Shown piece after piece: positions 2,341-10,596 of a stretch of DNA of 64,000 nucleotides (its first letter is position 1; each line of letters opens with the position of its first letter). Under the pieces are notes generated by a model, which did no database searches, was not told the DNA's origin, and was given only the letters and a program-made list of their open reading frames with translations. This stretch comes from Halopiger goleimassiliensis (lineage in GTDB: Archaea; Halobacteriota; Halobacteria; Halobacteriales; Natrialbaceae): NCBI RefSeq assembly GCF_000455345.1, contig NZ_HG315690.1, positions 588,815 to 652,814 on the forward strand, written 5' to 3'. The position numbers and the translations under genes were made by a program.

Positions 2341-4041
2341 TCAGGCCAAGCCGATTCGCTCGCTGTAGGCTCCGTGTCGTCGCTCGAAGACGGACATGAT
2401 CTCGCCCATCGTCGCGTAGGCCTTCACGGCGTCGACGATGTACGGCATCGCGTTCTCGCCGCGCTCGAGGGCCTCGTCGAGCGCCTCGAGCGTCTCCTCG
2501 ACCACCGCGTCGTCGCGTTCCTCCTTGACCGACTCGAGGCGTTCGCGCTGGCGTTCCTGGGCGGTCTCGTCGACCTGCAGGATGTCCGGGCTGGTGTCCT
2601 CCTCGAGGGTGTACTCGTTGACGCCGACGACGACCTCCTCGCCGCGTTCGACCCGTTCCTGGTACTCGTAGGCGGCGTCCTGGATCTCCCGGTGGAAGTA
2701 GCCGTCGTCGATCCCCTGCAGGATGCCGTCCCGAACGGAGCCGTCTCCCATGTCGCGGATCTCCTCGATGTAGGCCATCGCCTCCCGTTCGATCTCGTTG
2801 GTCAGCGACTCGACGGCGAAGCTCCCGCCCAGCGGGTCGACGATGTCGGCGACGCCGGACTCCTCGGCGATGATCTGCTGGGTGCGAAGGGCGACCCGAA
2901 CGGCCTCCTCCGAGGGCAGTGCCAGCGCCTCGTCGAAGCTATTCGTGTGCAGCGACTGGGTACCGCCGAGGACGCCCGCGAGCGCCTGGATCGTCACGCG
3001 GACGATGTTGTTCATCGGCTGCTGAGCGGTCAACGACTGGCCCGCCGTCTGGGTGTGGAACTTCAGCCGCTTCGATTCCGCGCGCTCGGCGTCGTACCAC
3101 TCGTCCATCACGCGGGCGTAGATCCGCCGGGCGGCCCGGAACTTCGCGATCTCCTCGAAGAAGGAGTTGTGGCAGTTGAAGAAAAAGGAGAGGCGGGGCG
3201 CGAACGCGTCGACCTCGAGGCCGCGGTCGACGGCGTCCTCGACGTAGCCGAAGCCGTCGGCGAGCGTGAACGCGAGTTCCTGGACGGCCGTGGAGCCGGC
3301 CTCGCGAATGTGATAGCCCGAGATCGAGATGGGGTGGAACTTGGGGGTCTCCTCGGTCGAGAACTCGACGACGTCCGTGACGAGGTCGAGCGAGGGTTCC
3401 GGGGGGATCACCCACTCCTTCTGGGCGATGAACTCCTTGAACATGTCGTTCTGGAGGGTGCCCCGGATCTCCTCGCGGGGAACGCCCTGCTGGTCGGCCA
3501 GCGCGACGTACATGGCGTAGATCACCGGCGCGGAGGGGTTGATCGTAAAGCTCGTGGAAATCTCGCCGAGGTCGATCCCGTCGAACAGGATCTCCATATC
3601 GCGCAGCGTGTCGACCGCGACGCCCTCCTTGCCGACCTCGCCGTCGCTCATCGGGTCGTCCGAGTCCAGACCCATCAGCGTCGGCATGTCGAACGCGACC
3701 GAGAGCCCCGTCTGACCCTCGTCGATCAGGTAGTGGAATCGCTCGTTGGTCTCCTCGGCCGTCCCGAAGCCGGCGAACTGCCGCATCGTCCACGTCCGGC
3801 CGCGGTACATCGTCGGGTACGGCCCCCGGGTGTACGGTTCCTCGCCCGGAAACCCCAACTCCTCGAGGTAGTCGAGATCGGCGACGTCCTCGGGGGTGTA
3901 GAGGCGATCTACCTCGAGATTCGAGACGGTCGCGAAGCGATCCTGTCGTTCGCCGTGGCGCTCCAGCACCGGATCGAGCGTCTCACGGTCCCATTCCTCG
4001 GTCGCCTTGCGGATCGCCTCGAGGTCGTCGGCGTCGTACAT
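2341..4041 (-). CDS. mcmA1: Methylmalonyl-CoA mutase, large (catalytic) subunit
   Basis: Catalyses (R)-methylmalonyl-CoA to succinyl-CoA isomerisation with coenzyme B12, the last step of propionyl-CoA assimilation. At 566 residues it contains only the substrate-binding TIM barrel, with TRGPYPTMYRGRTWTMRQ and the FAGFGTAEETN segment near residues 85-115. The cobalamin-binding domain (DxHxxG) is absent, as usual in archaea where it is a separate small subunit. That subunit and the MeaB-like chaperone are not in this window. Start chosen at MYDADDLEAI, where family alignment begins; an in-frame extension upstream is GC-noise. Functional partner in the window: the acyl-CoA carboxyltransferase at 53163. 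Confidence 0.93.
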   Translation of the reverse strand: MYDADDLEAIRKATEEWDRETLDPVLERHGERQDRFATVSNLEVDRLYTPEDVADLDYLEELGFPGEEPYTRGPYPTMYRGRTWTMRQFAGFGTAEETNERFHYLIDEGQTGLSVAFDMPTLMGLDSDDPMSDGEVGKEGVAVDTLRDMEILFDGIDLGEISTSFTINPSAPVIYAMYVALADQQGVPREEIRGTLQNDMFKEFIAQKEWVIPPEPSLDLVTDVVEFSTEETPKFHPISISGYHIREAGSTAVQELAFTLADGFGYVEDAVDRGLEVDAFAPRLSFFFNCHNSFFEEIAKFRAARRIYARVMDEWYDAERAESKRLKFHTQTAGQSLTAQQPMNNIVRVTIQALAGVLGGTQSLHTNSFDEALALPSEEAVRVALRTQQIIAEESGVADIVDPLGGSFAVESLTNEIEREAMAYIEEIRDMGDGSVRDGILQGIDDGYFHREIQDAAYEYQERVERGEEVVVGVNEYTLEEDTSPDILQVDETAQERQRERLESVKEERDDAVVEETLEALDEALERGENAMPYIVDAVKAYATMGEIMSVFERRHGAYSERIGLA

Positions 4042-4251
4042 GGATGCAATATTTGCCAGCCTGGTTGGTAAGGATTCCGGGGTGTGGTATCGAACGACAT
4101 CCAGGTCGGTATCGCAACACCTTTTTTCGAACCACCGAAAGCGTGCCGTAGTCATGCATATCGGGGAGGGTTCGGTTCCACTGATCGTCGCCCAGCAGGG
4201 ATCGTCCGCCCCTGTCTCGAGGGCCACGTCGCGTCACGGAGGGTCCCAGTA

Positions 4252-4920
4252 ATGTATCTCGTCGTCATCGGAGCCGGGAAAACCGGCCGAAGCCTGGTCG
4301 AACTCGCAGTCGAAGACGGACACGACGTGGTCGTCGTCGAAATCGACGAGGAGAAGGCGAACGCCATCTCCGCCGACTACGACTGTCTCGTGTTGCACGC
4401 CGACGCGACGAACGACGGCACGCTCCAGGACGCGGGGATCGACCGGGCCGACGCCGTGATCTCCACGACGAACGTCGACGCCGTCAACATCATGGTGATG
4501 TTGCTCGCCCAGGAACACGACGTGCCCAACCTGTTGAGCGTCGTCCACGAGCCGGCACACCTCCCCGTTTTCGAGAAGATCGGCGTCAACGTCATCGAGA
4601 ATCCCCAGCGGCTGATCGCCGAGTACCTGTATCACTCCGTTCAGTATCCCGGGGTCAGCGACTTCGTCGAACTCGCCGACGGGACGGAACTGGTCGAACT
4701 CGCGGTCGATCCGGGATCGCCCGTCGCCGACCAGTCCCTGGCTGACGCGAAGTCGTCGGGCGAGCTTCCGGAGGGCTGTCTCGTCGTCGCCCTGCAACGC
4801 GGCGACGAGTTGTACCCGCCGGACGGGACGACGGTGCTCTCGGCCGGTGACGACGTGACGCTGCTCGTCGACGACGAACACATCGACGACGCAATTGCGG
4901 CCTTTTCCTCGCCCGAGTGA
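4252..4920 (+). CDS. trkA: Trk potassium uptake system, RCK regulatory subunit TrkA
   Basis: A 222-residue soluble gating subunit that binds to the cytoplasmic face of TrkH. Residues 1-140 form the RCK-N Rossmann fold with GAGKTG (7-12) and an acidic residue ending beta-2 (VVVVEID), typical of NAD(H)/nucleotide binding. Residues about 145-220 are the RCK-C (TrkA_C) domain (ELVELAVDPGSPVADQSL). Its TGA lies directly before the trkH ATG, so the two form an operon. Regulation of archaeal Trk by ATP/NADH or cyclic di-AMP through RCK domains is known for relatives, not shown here. Confidence 0.93.
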   Translation: MYLVVIGAGKTGRSLVELAVEDGHDVVVVEIDEEKANAISADYDCLVLHADATNDGTLQDAGIDRADAVISTTNVDAVNIMVMLLAQEHDVPNLLSVVHEPAHLPVFEKIGVNVIENPQRLIAEYLYHSVQYPGVSDFVELADGTELVELAVDPGSPVADQSLADAKSSGELPEGCLVVALQRGDELYPPDGTTVLSAGDDVTLLVDDEHIDDAIAAFSSPE

Positions 4921-4922
4921 GT

Positions 4923-6467
4923 ATGGTATCGGTGCAGTTCGGAACCGTCGCGCGCGACGTCGGCCGCATACTGCGAGTCGTCGCGCTGATGCCGCTCGCC
5001 TCGATTCTCGTCGCCGTCGTCGTCGGCGAGTTCTACGCCGTTCCCGCGTTCGTCGCCACCGCCGTCGTGTTCGCCGCCGTCGGGACGGGCCTCGCCCGGC
5101 GGTACGCGGACGCGCCGCAGCCGGGCAAACTCCACGGGATGATGATCGCGGCGGCGGCGTGGGCGTTCGTCGCCCTCCTCGGAAGTCTCCCGTTCCTGCT
5201 CGTCGCTGGAACGATCGCGTACGGCCCGTCGTGGCTCGCCACGCCCGAACTCGGCGAGACGACCGCGGCGTTTCTGCGGCCGTTACACGCCGTCTTCGAG
5301 AGCATGAGCGGCTACACCTCGACCGGTCTCACGATGGCGACCGACGAATCGACGCTGCCGTCGTCGATCCAGTGGTGGCGCTCGTTCACGGAGTGGGTCG
5401 GCGGCGTCGGCGTGATCGTCCTCACGGTCGGCATCCTCGCCAGGCCGGGCAGCGGCTCGCTGACCCTCTACGAGAGCGAGGCCCGCTCCGAGAAGATCCA
5501 CCCCAGCATCGTCTCGACGGCGCGGGACATCTGGAAACTCTACCTCGGGTTCACGGTCGGAGCGATCGCCCTCTTCTTCCTCGCCGGCATGCCCGTCTGG
5601 GACGCGATCAACCACGCGATGACCGCCATCTCGACGGGCGGATTCTCGGTTCACGCCGACTCGATCGGCCACTACGGCGAGCCGCTCATCGAGTACGCCG
5701 TCATCCCCGTGATGGTCGCGGGATCGATCGCCTTCCCCGTCCACTACCTCATCTTCAAAGGGGAGATCCGGAACCTCTACGCCGACCTCCAGACCCGCTG
5801 GGTGTTCATCTGGTTCACCGTCGGCAGCGCGGTCCTGATCGCGATCCTCTCGCTGCGCGGGTTCTACGGCTCGCTCGAGGAGACGATACGGATCGGCCTG
5901 TTTCAGTTCGTCTCTGCGACCTCGAACGCCGGGTTCGGGACGGCGACGCTCGGCGGGGGGACCGAGCAGGTCTGGACGGCCGACGCGATCCTCTTTCTCT
6001 GTCTCGGGATGTTGACCGGCGCGGCAGCCGGGTCGACGGTCGGCGGCCTGAAGCTCATCCGCGTCATCACGCTCGTGAAAGGGGTCCGGTGGCGCATCAG
6101 CGGAGTATTTACGCCGGTCTCCGCGGTGCGACGCCTGCAACTCGGCGATCGGCGGCTCTCGGCGGACCAGGCCGCGAAGGAGATCGAAGAGGCCGCGATC
6201 GTACTGGTGCTCTGGTTCGCGTTTCTCGCGATCGGGATCGCGGTCATGCTGGCGATCCTCCCGACCGAGACGCCCACGGAGTACGTGATCTTCGACGTGA
6301 TGAGCGCCCAGAGCACCGTGGGGCTCGACACCGGTATCACCGGGGTGGAGATGCCCAACGCCGGGAAAGCGGTGCTGATCATCAACATGTGGGTCGGCCG
6401 TCTCGAGATCATCCCCGTCGTCGTCCTGCTCCGCGGGGCGTTGCTCCGGTTTGATCTCTACCGGTGA
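4923..6467 (+). CDS. trkH: TrkH-family potassium uptake transporter
   Basis: A 514-residue integral membrane K+ transporter/channel with fourfold repeated M1-P-M2 units. All four selectivity loops can be read, each with its conserved glycine: SGYTSTGLT, AISTGGFS, SATSNAGFG and AQSTVGLD. It imports potassium, the main compatible cation of salt-in haloarchaea. ATG 4923 sits two bases after the trkA stop; an alternative GTG at 4917 overlaps that stop by four bases and would add two residues. Co-transcription with trkA is very likely. Confidence 0.93.
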   Translation: MVSVQFGTVARDVGRILRVVALMPLASILVAVVVGEFYAVPAFVATAVVFAAVGTGLARRYADAPQPGKLHGMMIAAAAWAFVALLGSLPFLLVAGTIAYGPSWLATPELGETTAAFLRPLHAVFESMSGYTSTGLTMATDESTLPSSIQWWRSFTEWVGGVGVIVLTVGILARPGSGSLTLYESEARSEKIHPSIVSTARDIWKLYLGFTVGAIALFFLAGMPVWDAINHAMTAISTGGFSVHADSIGHYGEPLIEYAVIPVMVAGSIAFPVHYLIFKGEIRNLYADLQTRWVFIWFTVGSAVLIAILSLRGFYGSLEETIRIGLFQFVSATSNAGFGTATLGGGTEQVWTADAILFLCLGMLTGAAAGSTVGGLKLIRVITLVKGVRWRISGVFTPVSAVRRLQLGDRRLSADQAAKEIEEAAIVLVLWFAFLAIGIAVMLAILPTETPTEYVIFDVMSAQSTVGLDTGITGVEMPNAGKAVLIINMWVGRLEIIPVVVLLRGALLRFDLYR

Positions 6468-6572
6468 CGGCTTCGAGGCTGCGAGCCGACTTGCTGCCGT
6501 GATCGGAGCGAAACGAAACCGGGTAATCGGGCGACGGTCGACCCCTCAGCGGGTCCGAAGTGTGACCGGGGG

Positions 6573-7379
6573 TCAGTCGCCCGACTGGAGCCGCTGGGTC
6601 GTCTGGACGAGCGGGTGGTGGGCGTAGTCGACGACTTCGATGTCGTCGATCCGCTCGAGTCCCTCTTTCTCGGCCGTCTTGGCCATCCCGAGGTCGATCT
6701 CCCGATCGACGACGATCACGTAGGCGTCCATCTCGTCGATCCCCAGGCGATCGGCCGCGAGCACGCGGTGGTGGCCGTCCGCGAGCAACAGCGTCCCCGC
6801 GTTGTCGATGACCACCAGCGGTTCGGCCAGCCCGCGCTCGAGTTCGTAGCGCCGCCCCTCGAGTTCGTCGGCGTAGACCCGCCCCTGGGTCGGCGTCAGC
6901 GCCTCGAGGGCGACGGTCCGTCGCTCCTGCTCGAGGTCGATCTCGTGGATCTGTTCCAGGGTTCGCATCAGTTTGCCCACCTTCTGGGGCGTCGCGCGTT
7001 CGATCTGGCTGCGGACGACGTCGGCGTTGGAGATGATGCCCACCAGGTTGCCGGCGTCGTCGACGACGGGGAGTTTCTGGATCCCCGACCGGAGGATGAC
7101 GCGGGCGGCGTCGTTGACCTTCATCTCGGGGTGGGCGACGAGCAGGTCGGTCGTCATCACCTTGAAGATCGGTTCGTCCTCGTCGGCGAGCAACAGATCG
7201 CGGGCGCTGACGAACCCCTCGACCCGACGGCGTTCACAGACCGGATAGCCGCTGTGGTCGTCGCTCTCGGCGATGCGTTTCGCGACGGCTCCGACGGTCG
7301 CGTCCGGCGAGACCGTGGCCACGTCGCGGGTCATGTACTCCTGGACCTGCGCCTTGCTCCTGTCCGACGTGACCTCCAT
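6573..7379 (-). CDS. CBS-pair protein with C-terminal ParB/SerK-like domain
   Basis: A 268-residue protein. Residues about 10-125 form a tandem CBS pair (MTRDVATVSPDATVGAVAKR; SGIQKLPVVDDAGNLVGIIS), which usually binds adenine nucleotides or cyclic di-AMP. Residues about 140-260 are a ParB-like fold with the signature LLLADGHHRVLAADRLG. The DGHHR motif occurs in ParB-like nucleases and also in the archaeal ADP-dependent serine kinase SerK/SbnI family, so a kinase role is as plausible as DNA binding. ATG 7379 is picked because the CBS homology begins just after it. It lies between trkH and the RCK-DHH phosphoesterase. The domain calls are firm, the activity is not. Confidence 0.85.
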   Translation of the reverse strand: MEVTSDRSKAQVQEYMTRDVATVSPDATVGAVAKRIAESDDHSGYPVCERRRVEGFVSARDLLLADEDEPIFKVMTTDLLVAHPEMKVNDAARVILRSGIQKLPVVDDAGNLVGIISNADVVRSQIERATPQKVGKLMRTLEQIHEIDLEQERRTVALEALTPTQGRVYADELEGRRYELERGLAEPLVVIDNAGTLLLADGHHRVLAADRLGIDEMDAYVIVVDREIDLGMAKTAEKEGLERIDDIEVVDYAHHPLVQTTQRLQSGD

Positions 7380-7450
7380 GCCTCGCCGTACGGACCGGGC
7401 GCGCAAAAGTACTGTTATCGGCCTCCCGCCCCCGACGGCATCCGCACCGA

Positions 7451-8953
7451 TCAGGCCGACTCGCCGTCGCCGCGCTCGCCGGCGTCGGTGAACAGCCACT
7501 CGCTGGTCCGGTCGTACGCGCCGACCGGGACGCCGGGTCTGGTCTCGATCGCCTCGAAAAAGCGGTTCGTGATCACTTCCTCGACGACGCTGACTATCGA
7601 ATCGACCTCCTCGTCGTCGTCCACGTCGCCCAGGATCCCCACCTCGAGTTGGGCACCAGCCATGTCGGCGTGACCGCCAGCGCTGCCGATCCGCTCGAAC
7701 GCGTCGCGGAGGGTCTCGCCGAGGTCGACGTCGTCGGCGCGGGACCGGGCCGAGAGGTAGGCCATTTCGTCCCGGAAGCCAAACACCAGCGTCGTGTCGA
7801 CGCCCTCCATCGCGAGCAACTGGTCGGCCGCCTGCGGGAGCGCGTCCCGGTTCGAGAGGCGGCCGACGCTGGCGACGGCGACCGAATCACGCTGGTCCCG
7901 ATTCTTGATCGCCCGCGCGATGGTCTCTAAGGTTTCGCCCTCGATCGTCGGCTGTTCGATCTGCTCGAGGAGGCTCACGTCCGCGTGTCCCCAGAGGATC
8001 GACGCCGCCCGGAAGTCCGCGGGCGAGACCTCGCGGGTGAAGTCGCTGGTGTCGACGCGGATGCCGTAGAGTAACGCCGTGGCGGTCGCCGTCCCGAACT
8101 CGAGGTCGTACCGGTGCAGGAACTCGGTGAGGATCGTGCTGGTCGCCCCAACGTGTTCGCGAAGTTCGACGAACGTCCCGGGCACCGGTCCGCGCGGGGG
8201 ATGGTGGTCGACCACGATGTCGACGTGTAACGTCTCCGGGAGGCCGTCGTTGACGCCCGGCCGGGAGTGATCGACCAGCGCGAACGACGAGAACTCCTCG
8301 AGCGACGCCTGATCCTCGAGGTTGCGCAACGGGAGGTCGAGCAGGTTGACCATCGCCCTGTTCTCCTGGTGGGAGATTTCGCCGAAATAGCAGGCCTCGG
8401 CCTCGAGGCCGTGCCACTGGGCGATGTCGACCAGCGCGACGGCGCTTGCGATCGCGTCGGGGTCGGGATTGTCGTGGGTGACGACCGCCAGCGGCCCGTC
8501 GATCGACTGCAGTTGATGCCGGAGTTCGATCGCCGATTCCGCACCCGGGCCGAGGCTCACGTCGGCGACCCGGTCCGCGATCGCACTCTCGGCGTCGACC
8601 ACGTGATCGGCGAGGTCGCCGAACTCCGTTCGGTCGGCCGGCGTCGGGTTACCGCCCAGATACGCGACGATCGACGACTCCGGGAACCGTTCGCGGGCTC
8701 GCCGGAGCGCGACGCGGTTGACGTCGGTCCGATCTGCGCCGACGAAGACGGTCTCCGGGTCCTCGATCGAGGCGATCGCCGAGGGATCGGTCGGATCGGC
8801 CGCTCGAGCGGGGATGCTCGCGTCCCGCAGCGTCTCGACGATGCTCTCGTCGGCGGTGACGACGAGCAGGCGGTCGGTCCCGTCGCGCTCGGCCAGCTCC
8901 TCGATGATCCCGCGACAGACGCTACCGCAGCCGAGCACGAGCTGTAACCCCAT
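7451..8953 (-). CDS. RCK-N/DHH/DHHA1 phosphoesterase (cyclic di-AMP or oligonucleotide phosphodiesterase candidate)
   Basis: 500 residues. The N-terminal 130 form a TrkA-like Rossmann domain (LGCGSVCRGI). Residues about 155-330 form the DHH catalytic domain with DNPDPDAIAS, VDHSR, VDHHPP and VDTSDFTR carrying the metal-binding Asp/His. Residues about 385-470 form DHHA1 with GGHADMAGAQL, matching the GGHxxAAGA substrate motif. DHH-DHHA1 enzymes cleave short oligonucleotides, pAp or cyclic di-AMP. The fused potassium-type RCK-N domain and nearby trkAH suggest a signalling hydrolase rather than a RecJ nuclease. It starts 71 bases before the CBS gene in the same direction, so they may be co-transcribed. 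Confidence 0.88.
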   Translation of the reverse strand: MGLQLVLGCGSVCRGIIEELAERDGTDRLLVVTADESIVETLRDASIPARAADPTDPSAIASIEDPETVFVGADRTDVNRVALRRARERFPESSIVAYLGGNPTPADRTEFGDLADHVVDAESAIADRVADVSLGPGAESAIELRHQLQSIDGPLAVVTHDNPDPDAIASAVALVDIAQWHGLEAEACYFGEISHQENRAMVNLLDLPLRNLEDQASLEEFSSFALVDHSRPGVNDGLPETLHVDIVVDHHPPRGPVPGTFVELREHVGATSTILTEFLHRYDLEFGTATATALLYGIRVDTSDFTREVSPADFRAASILWGHADVSLLEQIEQPTIEGETLETIARAIKNRDQRDSVAVASVGRLSNRDALPQAADQLLAMEGVDTTLVFGFRDEMAYLSARSRADDVDLGETLRDAFERIGSAGGHADMAGAQLEVGILGDVDDDEEVDSIVSVVEEVITNRFFEAIETRPGVPVGAYDRTSEWLFTDAGERGDGESA

Positions 8954-9069: not shown

Positions 9070-10596
9070 TCAGGGCGGCCAGACGTCGCCAGCGGTCTCG
9101 AGCGCGACTTCGACGACCGGTCCGAAGCCGGGCAGCAGGACGACCGTCATCACGGCGGCGAACGCGATCGCCGCGTAGATGCCGGTCGGCTGTGCGAGCG
9201 GGTCGCGCTCGACCAGCGGCTCCTCGATCCAGACGGCCTTGACCAGCCGCGCGTAGTAGTACAGCGACAGGGCGCTGTTGACCACCAGCGCGGCCGCGAC
9301 CAGCAGCAGGCCGGTCTCGAGTGCGCCGACGAACAGGAAGTACTTGCTCCAGAAGCCGCCCAGCGGCGGAATGCCCGCGAGGCTGAACATGAAAATCGCG
9401 AGCGCGAAGCAGGCGACGGGCGCGCGGCGGGCGAGGCCGTTGTAGTCCTCGAAGGTGCGGCCGACGCCCCAGTGTTCGGCCAGCGCGACGAACAGGAACG
9501 CGCCGGTGTTCATGAAGCCGTAGACGAGCAGGTGCATCATCGCCGCGCCCATGACCAGTTCGCCGCCGTCGACGGTGAGGCCGGCCAGGCCGATCAGCAC
9601 GTAGCCCGCGTGTCCGATCGAGGAGTACGCGAGCATGCGCTTGACCTTGTCCTGGGTTGCGGCGGCGAAGTTCCCGACGGTCATCGTGACGACCGCGAGC
9701 ACGACGAACGCGAGCGTCCAGTCGATGCCGATCAGTTCGTTCGTCACGTCGATCGGGAACGCCGTCGAGAAGACGCGGAACGCGATCACGAAGCCGGCGG
9801 CCTTCGAGGCCGACGAGAGGAAGGCCGAGATCGGCGCGGGCGCGCCCTCGTAGGCCTCGGGGGCCCAGAAGTGGAACGGGACGCTGGCCGTCTTGAACGC
9901 GATGCCGCCGATCAGCATCAACACGCCGAGCCCCAGCAGCCCGCCGACCTCAGCGCCGTCGTCGACCAGCGTTCCGAGTTCGGTCGCGATGGCGTCGAGT
10001 TGGAGGACGCCGGTCGCGCCGTAGATCAGCGAGATGCCGTAGACCATGATCGCCGAGGACAGTGCGCCGATCAGGAAGTACTTCAGCCCGGCCTCGACGC
10101 TGCCGCGGTCGTCCTTGAGAATGGACACGAGCGCGTACGACGGCAGGCTCGAGAGCTCGAGCGCGATGAAGACCGTCACGAGGCTGTTGGCGGTGGCCAT
10201 CGTGGCCATGCCCGTCGCCGCGAGCATCATCAGGGAGTAGTACTCGGCCTGGTAGGCGTGGCCGTCCATGTAGTCGTAGCTGGCGACCGACACCAGCGCG
10301 GTGACGATCGCGACGACGATGGTGAAGTACAGGGCGAGCTGGTCGACGACGAGCTGGCCGTCGAACAGTTCGATCGCCCCGAAGCCCTCGATCCCGCCGA
10401 GCCCGACGTCGGCGGCGATGAACCAGGCGGCGACGCCCAGCGCGGCCAGCGAGCCGACGGTCGCGGTACCCGCGAGCAGTGCGCGATTGGTCGACCGCGG
10501 GCTGACGCTGTCGATCAGGAACAGGACGAGTGCGGTCGCGGCCAGCAACAGGGCCGGCGCGAGCGCGACCCACTCACCGAGTTCGATCAGCGCCAT
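9070..10596 (-). CDS. nuoN: NADH-quinone oxidoreductase-like complex I, subunit N
   Basis: A 508-residue antiporter-like membrane subunit of complex I and last gene of the nuo operon. The conserved charged helix-5 glutamate appears in ALELSSLPSYALV, and the proton-channel lysine helix in FKTASVPFHFWAPEAYEGA. About 14 transmembrane helices are expected and the hydrophobicity pattern fits. Its start ATG overlaps the nuoM stop TAA by one base, giving tight translational coupling. The complex probably takes electrons from ferredoxin, F420H2 or another donor, because nuoEFG are absent. Confidence 0.95.
   Translation of the reverse strand: MALIELGEWVALAPALLLAATALVLFLIDSVSPRSTNRALLAGTATVGSLAALGVAAWFIAADVGLGGIEGFGAIELFDGQLVVDQLALYFTIVVAIVTALVSVASYDYMDGHAYQAEYYSLMMLAATGMATMATANSLVTVFIALELSSLPSYALVSILKDDRGSVEAGLKYFLIGALSSAIMVYGISLIYGATGVLQLDAIATELGTLVDDGAEVGGLLGLGVLMLIGGIAFKTASVPFHFWAPEAYEGAPAPISAFLSSASKAAGFVIAFRVFSTAFPIDVTNELIGIDWTLAFVVLAVVTMTVGNFAAATQDKVKRMLAYSSIGHAGYVLIGLAGLTVDGGELVMGAAMMHLLVYGFMNTGAFLFVALAEHWGVGRTFEDYNGLARRAPVACFALAIFMFSLAGIPPLGGFWSKYFLFVGALETGLLLVAAALVVNSALSLYYYARLVKAVWIEEPLVERDPLAQPTGIYAAIAFAAVMTVVLLPGFGPVVEVALETAGDVWPP

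What the first reader, a model, noticed from the sequence alone, without database searches (positions are those of the whole stretch)
4252..8953. Possible potassium/cyclic di-AMP module: TrkA, TrkH, CBS-ParB and RCK-DHH-DHHA1
A potassium transporter operon is followed by a CBS-pair protein and by a DHH-DHHA1 phosphodiesterase carrying an RCK-N (TrkA-like) domain. Known: cyclic di-AMP controls K+ transport through RCK and CBS domains in bacteria, DHH-DHHA1 enzymes degrade it, and haloarchaea synthesise it. All three classes of binding or degrading domain are adjacent here. Inference: a local feedback loop on K+ accumulation.
Basis: partly seen in the sequence, partly recalled or inferred. Interest (0 to 1): 0.6.

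Follow-up and report, generated by a model that had tools for sequence, protein, structure and literature searches.

The report
Haloarchaeal RCK-DHH phosphodiesterase beside CBS-ParB protein
The potassium transporter beside these genes is a neighbour in this genome only, but the RCK-DHH-DHHA1 enzyme next to it is a good candidate for the still unidentified enzyme that degrades the signal molecule cyclic di-AMP in salt-loving archaea.

Summary
The four genes are real, but they do not form a potassium module. trkA-trkH (+ strand) run towards the CBS-ParB and RCK-DHH-DHHA1 genes (- strand) and lie beside them only in this genome: 0 of 71 other haloarchaeal regions (±10 kb) and 0 of 80 named loci (±6 kb). 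The conserved unit is nuoN > RCK-DHH-DHHA1 > CBS-ParB, often followed by methylmalonyl-CoA mutase. RCK-DHH and CBS-ParB are adjacent in 74 of 88 genomes, but only in haloarchaea.

The c-di-AMP idea survives for the DHH protein alone. Across 247 archaeal genomes the RCK-DHH family co-occurs with diadenylate cyclase (among genomes ≥90% complete: 182 both, 13 neither, 7 discordant) and is co-lost with it. CBS-ParB does not follow this pattern. The closest solved structures are c-di-AMP phosphodiesterases, with GdpP first by sequence.

Haloarchaea carry two RCK-DHH paralogues. The slow one (P2), orthologous to the methanogen single copy, has an intact RCK motif but an altered active site. The window copy (P1) keeps every catalytic residue in all 80 sequences of a named set and has an eroded RCK domain. 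Best reading: P1 is a catalytically competent c-di-AMP/pApA phosphodiesterase and P2 is its sensing partner. No activity has been shown.

The parts
7451..8953 (-). P1: RCK_N-DHH-DHHA1 phosphodiesterase candidate, 500 aa
   Evidence: Pfam TrkA_N/DHH/DHHA1; AlphaFold model pLDDT 87; conserved in the order
8579..8953 (-). RCK_N (TrkA_N) domain of P1, residues about 1-125, eroded: GCGSVC in place of GxGxxG
   Evidence: 39.6 bits against 75.7 in P2 and 94.4 in a methanogen orthologue; GxGxxG intact in only 35 of 80 P1 sequences; fold like 3llv/KtrA/MthK, Z 17-18
7964..8500 (-). DHH domain of P1, residues about 152-330: H160/D164/D166, D228, D249-H250-H251, D301
   Evidence: Invariant in 22 of 22 and 80 of 80 P1 sequences; aligned with GdpP
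7643..7921 (-). DHHA1 domain of P1, residues about 345-437, with the G426-G427-H428 motif
   Evidence: Invariant in 80 of 80; Pfam DHHA1 47.3 bits
6573..7379 (-). CBS-pair plus ParB-like protein, 268 aa, start ATG 7379
   Evidence: CBS 91 bits; ParBc_2 and ParB hits; model pLDDT 85; in 95 of 99 genomes of the order and 155 of 247 of the phylum
6576..6944 (-). ParB-like C-terminal domain with the invariant LADGHHR-type box (DGHHR in all aligned)
   Evidence: Alignments A1 and A3
4252..4920 (+). TrkA (RCK_N plus RCK_C); not part of the conserved unit
   Evidence: absent from the same place in all other genomes compared
4917..6467 (+). TrkH potassium uptake subunit; not part of the conserved unit
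   Evidence: TrkH 241 bits; patchy in the family
9070..10596 (-). NuoN, end of the complex I genes; conserved upstream neighbour of P1
   Evidence: Proton_antipo_M; synteny
2341..4227 (-). Methylmalonyl-CoA mutase; frequent neighbour on the other side of CBS-ParB
   Evidence: 730.8 bits; synteny

Best explanation
Shown: the window DHH protein (P1) is a haloarchaeal paralogue of an ancient euryarchaeal RCK_N-DHH-DHHA1 family. Its hydrolytic site is fully conserved and its RCK domain is decaying. The sister paralogue P2, elsewhere in the same genome, keeps the RCK nucleotide-binding motif but has changed active-site residues. Inferred: the ancestral enzyme hydrolyses c-di-AMP (and/or its product pApA) under control of a nucleotide (NAD(H), ATP or ADP) bound to the RCK domain. 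In haloarchaea the two jobs were divided after duplication: P1 does the hydrolysis and P2 senses and regulates, possibly as a complex. P1 therefore helps set the c-di-AMP level made by the genome's DacZ-type cyclase and so acts on osmotic balance in the whole cell. It is not tied to the neighbouring Trk transporter, whose position is a one-genome coincidence. The CBS-ParB protein is a separate, very conserved protein of unknown function that shares gene order with P1 in haloarchaea only.
For: Closest solved relatives are c-di-AMP phosphodiesterases: GdpP by profile (E 4.5e-22, aligned over the whole DHH-DHHA1 part) and by Foldseek (2.8e-22); TmPDE first by Z (27.4). A diadenylate cyclase is present in this genome. 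DAC and RCK-DHH co-occur over 247 genomes (at least 90% complete: 182 both, 13 neither, 2 and 5 discordant, odds ratio 237), with co-loss in 8 of 8 genomes of one family and 6 of 8 of one genus that still has CBS-ParB. Tree: P1 one clade (100/99), P2 one clade (100/100) that joins the methanogen single copies (100/98). Catalytic residues: P1 80 of 80 intact; P2 motif IV D to E in 15 of 15, GGH to xGH in 15 of 15, last H of DHH lost in 11 of 15, and in 70 of 92 genomes in the pattern survey. RCK: P1 32% mean identity against 68% in P2 across the same 11 genomes. Trk adjacency unique to this genome. An active/inactive DHH pair in one complex is known in Haloferax: RecJ3 with RecJ4, which lacks active-site residues (PMC10470531).
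Against: No activity was measured. Family II pyrophosphatases, NrnA and RecJ share the same core fold, so substrate cannot be read from fold. The haloarchaeal orthologue of the family that tracks DAC in methanogens is P2, not P1. The own genome has two further DHH-DHHA1 proteins without RCK (P3, P4), and P4 also has all checked residues, so P1 is not the only candidate. Some methanogens carry E at motif IV with intact DHH (3 of 20), so D to E alone need not kill P2; P2 is strongly conserved overall and may have a changed activity instead. Families f9 and f11 do not show the intact DHH...R-[VTAI]-D-T pattern anywhere, so the prediction that genomes without P1 keep an intact P2 was not borne out. 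Seven of 202 good genomes are discordant between DAC and RCK-DHH.
Confidence: 0.55

Rival explanations
1. P1 is a nanoRNase/PAP phosphatase or pApA hydrolase of the NrnA kind: it cleans up short oligonucleotides or pApA and has no direct role on c-di-AMP.
For: NrnA, DhhP and Rv2837c are close in fold (Z 22-24) and in profile (E about 1e-7). Genomes such as G120 keep RCK-DHH without a detected DAC.
Against: GdpP fits better by profile (4.5e-22 against about 5e-8) and by Foldseek E-value. Loss together with DAC is not expected of a general nanoRNase.
Confidence: 0.25
2. The reader's module: P1, CBS-ParB and TrkAH form a local c-di-AMP feedback loop on potassium uptake.
For: The genes are neighbours here; TrkA has an RCK_C domain; c-di-AMP controls Trk/Ktr proteins in bacteria (PMC12453120).
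Against: Trk is next to the pair in this genome only (0 of 71 and 0 of 80 others); the genes are convergent; TrkH is patchy in the family; CBS-ParB is not linked to DAC.
Confidence: 0.06
3. P1 and CBS-ParB work as a functional pair on some other adenine nucleotide: the CBS pair senses AMP/ATP/Ap4A, the ParB-like domain binds an NTP, and P1 hydrolyses the product.
For: Adjacent in the same order in 74 of 88 genomes, all 14 families. The CBS model resembles AMP/ADP/Ap4A-binding AcuB and DarB. The ParB fold can bind ATP, CTP or GTP (PMC12704722).
Against: The pair is split in part of f17 and most of f5. CBS-ParB stands without RCK-DHH beside it in the regions from outside the haloarchaea that were read, and beside nuoN without P1 in f2 and f9, which fits P1 arriving at an older nuoN/CBS-ParB junction.
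Confidence: 0.12

Closest known systems
GdpP (bacterial c-di-AMP phosphodiesterase; PDB 9n0l, 5xsi)
   Same: DHH-DHHA1 catalytic part with the same metal-ligand motifs; best profile and Foldseek match
   Different: P1 has an N-terminal RCK_N domain and none of GdpP's membrane, PAS and GGDEF parts (own knowledge of GdpP); about 23% identity
Archaeoglobus 'exopolyphosphatase-related protein', PDB 3llv
   Same: RCK_N domain of what looks like the same archaeal RCK-DHH family (E 1.8e-27 to a euryarchaeal single copy; Z 17.8 to P1)
   Different: Only the RCK domain was solved; P1's RCK is eroded
H. volcanii c-di-AMP phosphodiesterase candidates HVO_0756, HVO_0990, HVO_1690
   Same: Published as predicted candidates (PMC8305020, citing He et al. 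2020). HVO_0990 is probably the P1 orthologue, since it should lie beside the nuo genes (own memory, not checked here)
   Different: The listing does not separate a catalytically intact from an altered copy; no enzyme assay is known to me
RecJ3/RecJ4 of Haloferax
   Same: Pair of DHH proteins of which one lacks active-site residues, working in one complex (PMC10470531)
   Different: Nuclease/RNA system of another DHH group, no RCK domain
Archaeal CBS-ParB fusion proteins
   Same: Same architecture class, reported as the commonest archaeal ParB-fold fusion, mainly in Methanobacteriota and Haloarchaea (PMC12704722)
   Different: That survey gives no function and does not mention the RCK-DHH neighbour (the term DHH does not occur in its main text)

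Membership tests
DHH-DHHA1 phosphodiesterase (DHH subfamily 1) | Four metal-ligand motifs (HxxPDxD, D, DHH, D) and the GGH of DHHA1 | tested here: met
   22 of 22 and 80 of 80 P1 sequences; both Pfam domains over cut-off
c-di-AMP phosphodiesterase | Hydrolysis of c-di-AMP to pApA or AMP | not testable with these tools
   Only indirect: co-occurrence with DAC and nearest structures
GdpP class | Membrane helices, PAS and degenerate GGDEF before DHH-DHHA1 | tested here: not met
   The N-terminus is RCK_N; no PAS or GGDEF hit
Bacterial RCK-type c-di-AMP receptor | RCK_C (TrkA_C) domain that binds c-di-AMP | tested here: not met
   P1 has TrkA_N only; the window TrkA does have TrkA_C, its binding was not tested
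RCK_N nucleotide-binding domain | GxGxxG dinucleotide motif | tested here: not met
   Window P1 has GCGSVC; 45 of 80 P1 sequences lack the motif. P2 has it in 15 of 15
c-di-AMP/potassium gene module | Conserved neighbourhood of transporter and c-di-AMP genes | tested here: not met
   0 of 71 regions and 0 of 80 named loci have TrkA or TrkH beside the pair
CbpB/DarB c-di-AMP-binding CBS protein | NCBIfam NF041630 score at or above cut-off | tested here: not met
   25.3 bits against 125; fold similarity to DarB is that of any CBS pair
ParB/Srx-fold protein (SerK-like) | ParB-fold domain | tested here: inconclusive
   ParBc_2 hit in 27 of 27 with best E 1.4e-6, window's own below gathering score; ParB structure at E 3e-4; the CBS part filled the fold lists
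ParB/Srx-fold protein (SerK-like) | NTP binding or serine kinase activity | not testable with these tools
   Needs a biochemical assay

The most novel reading that the evidence does not exclude
Haloarchaea split an ancestral RCK-gated c-di-AMP phosphodiesterase into two obligate halves: a catalytic copy that gave up its nucleotide sensor (P1) and a conserved pseudoenzyme that kept the sensor (P2). The two act together, so that the cell's NAD or ATP state sets the rate of c-di-AMP breakdown and with it potassium and osmotic balance.
Probability: 0.25. Interest if true: 0.7.

Novelty: new variant of a known kind. Interest (0 to 1): 0.5.

Why it matters
c-di-AMP is essential in Haloferax volcanii (PMC6741144), but the enzymes that degrade it and its product pApA were reported as unknown in 2021 (PMC8646023, PMC8305020). 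This work points to one family by co-occurrence with the cyclase, and within it to the copy with an intact active site. It gives a clear two-gene experiment in a tractable organism. If the sensor/enzyme split is right, it links the energy or redox state of the cell to a second messenger in organisms that live by balancing salt with potassium.

Tried and rejected
Trk/c-di-AMP local module: rejected on neighbourhood.

CBS-ParB as part of c-di-AMP signalling: rejected on phyletic pattern. It is absent from f19 and f22, which mostly have both DAC and RCK-DHH, and is retained where both are lost.

CBS-ParB and RCK-DHH as an ancient pair: rejected. In the regions read from outside the haloarchaea, CBS-ParB has no RCK-DHH beside it; the recurring neighbours there look from their sequences like a sugar-nucleotide transferase, an FKBP-type isomerase and a small heat-shock protein (my reading, no domain search).

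P1 as orthologue of the methanogen enzyme: rejected by the tree, which turned attention to P2.

Prediction that families without P1 keep an intact P2: not borne out with DNA patterns (f9 has DHN).

Neighbours of the methanogen RCK-DHH and of P2: nothing informative.

Fold search of CBS-ParB: the CBS pair filled the lists, so the ParB-like half remains untested by fold.

He et al. 2020 and Yin et al. 2020 are not held. No paper on archaeal RCK-DHH proteins was found with the phrases tried.
Full report
What is there. The window lies in a 3.9 Mb haloarchaeal genome; the closest named relatives of the DHH protein are from the Natrialba/Natronorubrum/Natrinema group, at about 70-76% identity. trkA (4252-4920) and trkH (4917-6467) are on the + strand. 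The CBS-ParB gene (6573-7379) and the RCK-DHH-DHHA1 gene P1 (7451-8953) are on the - strand, followed by nuoN, nuoM and nuoL. The two pairs converge. P1 has RCK_N (TrkA_N), DHH and DHHA1, but no RCK_C.

Neighbourhood. In 99 genomes of the order, P1 was found in nearly all and CBS-ParB in 95 as a near single copy at 60-87% identity. From the listed coordinates, P1 is directly upstream of CBS-ParB on the same strand in 74 of 88 genomes, in all 14 families compared, always in this order, with gaps mostly of 40-340 bp (coordinates were copied by hand). Seven of the ten f5 genomes have them far apart or on different contigs, and four of nine f17 genomes have them on opposite strands a few kb apart. 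TrkA or TrkH appears beside the pair only in the window genome among 72 regions of up to 20 kb, and in none of 80 named loci with up to 6 kb of flank. In f2 and f9, CBS-ParB lies next to nuoN without P1 between, so P1 probably arrived at an older nuoN/CBS-ParB junction. Outside the haloarchaea, the regions read around CBS-ParB hold no RCK-DHH.

Link with c-di-AMP. The genome has a DAC-domain protein over the family cut-off. RCK-DHH (profile A2, E <= 1e-50) is present in 222 and DAC in 223 of 247 genomes of the phylum. Of 202 genomes at least 90% complete, 182 have both, 13 neither, 2 only DAC and 5 only RCK-DHH (odds ratio 237, Fisher p 8e-15, presence lists copied by hand). Relatedness inflates the p value. 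The informative events are the absence of both from all 8 genomes of family f33 and from 6 of 8 genomes of genus g58, while the other two g58 genomes have both. Those six still carry CBS-ParB. In genomes where both were placed, the two genes are not neighbours (for example G151, 413 kb and 334 kb on the same contig), so one deletion does not explain the co-loss. CBS-ParB shows no link to DAC in non-haloarchaeal genomes once f33 is left out (odds ratio 1.25, p 0.74).

Structure and residues. The profile of P1 finds GdpP first among solved structures (9n0l E 4.5e-22; 5xsi 9e-17), then family II pyrophosphatases over the DHH half only, then NrnA and TmPDE. The model of P1 (mean pLDDT 87) matches GdpP best by Foldseek (2.8e-22) and TmPDE first by Z (27.4, rmsd 3.5, 307 aligned; GdpP 26.7). 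Its RCK part matches 3llv, MthK and KtrA (Z 17-18). All checked catalytic positions (H160, D164, D166, D228, D249, H250, H251, D301, G426, G427, H428) are invariant in 22 aligned P1 sequences and in 80 from the named set.

Two paralogues. Nearly every haloarchaeal genome examined also has a second full-length RCK-DHH-DHHA1 protein, P2 (G000:C1:1846733-1848136, 40% identical to P1). In a tree of 59 sequences, P1 and P2 are each one clade, and P2 groups with the methanogen single copies (100/98) apart from P1. P2 keeps GxGxxG in 15 of 15, but has E in place of D301 in 15 of 15, A or M in place of the first G of GGH in 15 of 15, and loses the last H of DHH in 11 of 15. A DNA pattern that requires the E version finds P2 in 92 of 99 genomes; the last DHH position reads Y, H, F, N, L, R, D, Q, C, T or E, with only 22 H (rows copied by hand). 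P1 has the reverse pattern: GxGxxG is intact in only 35 of 80. In 11 genomes that carry both, mean pairwise identity is 32% (RCK), 60% (DHH) and 61% (DHHA1) in P1, against 68%, 70% and 83% in P2. P2 is thus a strongly kept protein with an altered active site, and P1 a catalytically complete protein with a loosening sensor domain.

Interpretation. The best-supported mechanism is hydrolysis of c-di-AMP or pApA by P1, with P2 as a sensing partner or regulator. Hydrolysis chemistry, substrate and partnership are inference. P3 and P4 (RCK-less DHH-DHHA1 proteins in the same genome) are alternative hydrolases. An active/inactive DHH pair in one complex has a precedent in Haloferax RecJ3/RecJ4 (PMC10470531). 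HVO_0990 and HVO_1690, two of the three published candidates, are listed among proteins that rise in abundance under hypochlorite stress (PMC10294847); whether they are P1 and P2 was not checked here.

CBS-ParB. It is a CBS pair with a ParB-like domain (invariant DGHHR), present in 68 of 97 genera of the phylum. The architecture is reported as the commonest archaeal ParB-fold fusion, of unknown function (PMC12704722). Nothing here ties it to c-di-AMP or potassium.

Known and new. The c-di-AMP phosphodiesterase of Haloferax was reported as unidentified in 2021, with three predicted candidates (PMC8646023, PMC8305020). New here, as far as the held papers show, are the co-loss with DAC, the split between P1 and P2, and the finding that the Trk neighbour is accidental.

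Noticed in passing
G000:C1:1846733-1848136 (locus L201): P2, a second RCK-DHH-DHHA1 protein that is highly conserved in haloarchaea although its active-site residues are changed; it looks like a conserved pseudoenzyme and deserves its own study.
   Followed up: partly
6573-7379: The CBS-ParB protein is one of the more conserved proteins here (60-87% identity across an order, single copy, also in many methanogens) and has no known function.
   Followed up: partly
855-1882: Two universal-stress-protein-like ORFs in a row (the first confirmed by Pfam; the second is similar by eye), then a 90-aa ORF at 1919-2191 without any domain hit, upstream of methylmalonyl-CoA mutase.
   Followed up: no
L217 (5076-6212) and L216 (5047-6231) of the own genome: Two further DHH-DHHA1 proteins without an RCK domain (P3, P4); P4 has all checked catalytic residues, P3 has E at motif IV.
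   Followed up: partly
G000:C1:593734, 1549081, 2902683, 2085042: Four TrkH homologues in this genome; the window copy is 66-70% identical to patchily distributed copies in the family, some genomes holding two in tandem.
   Followed up: partly
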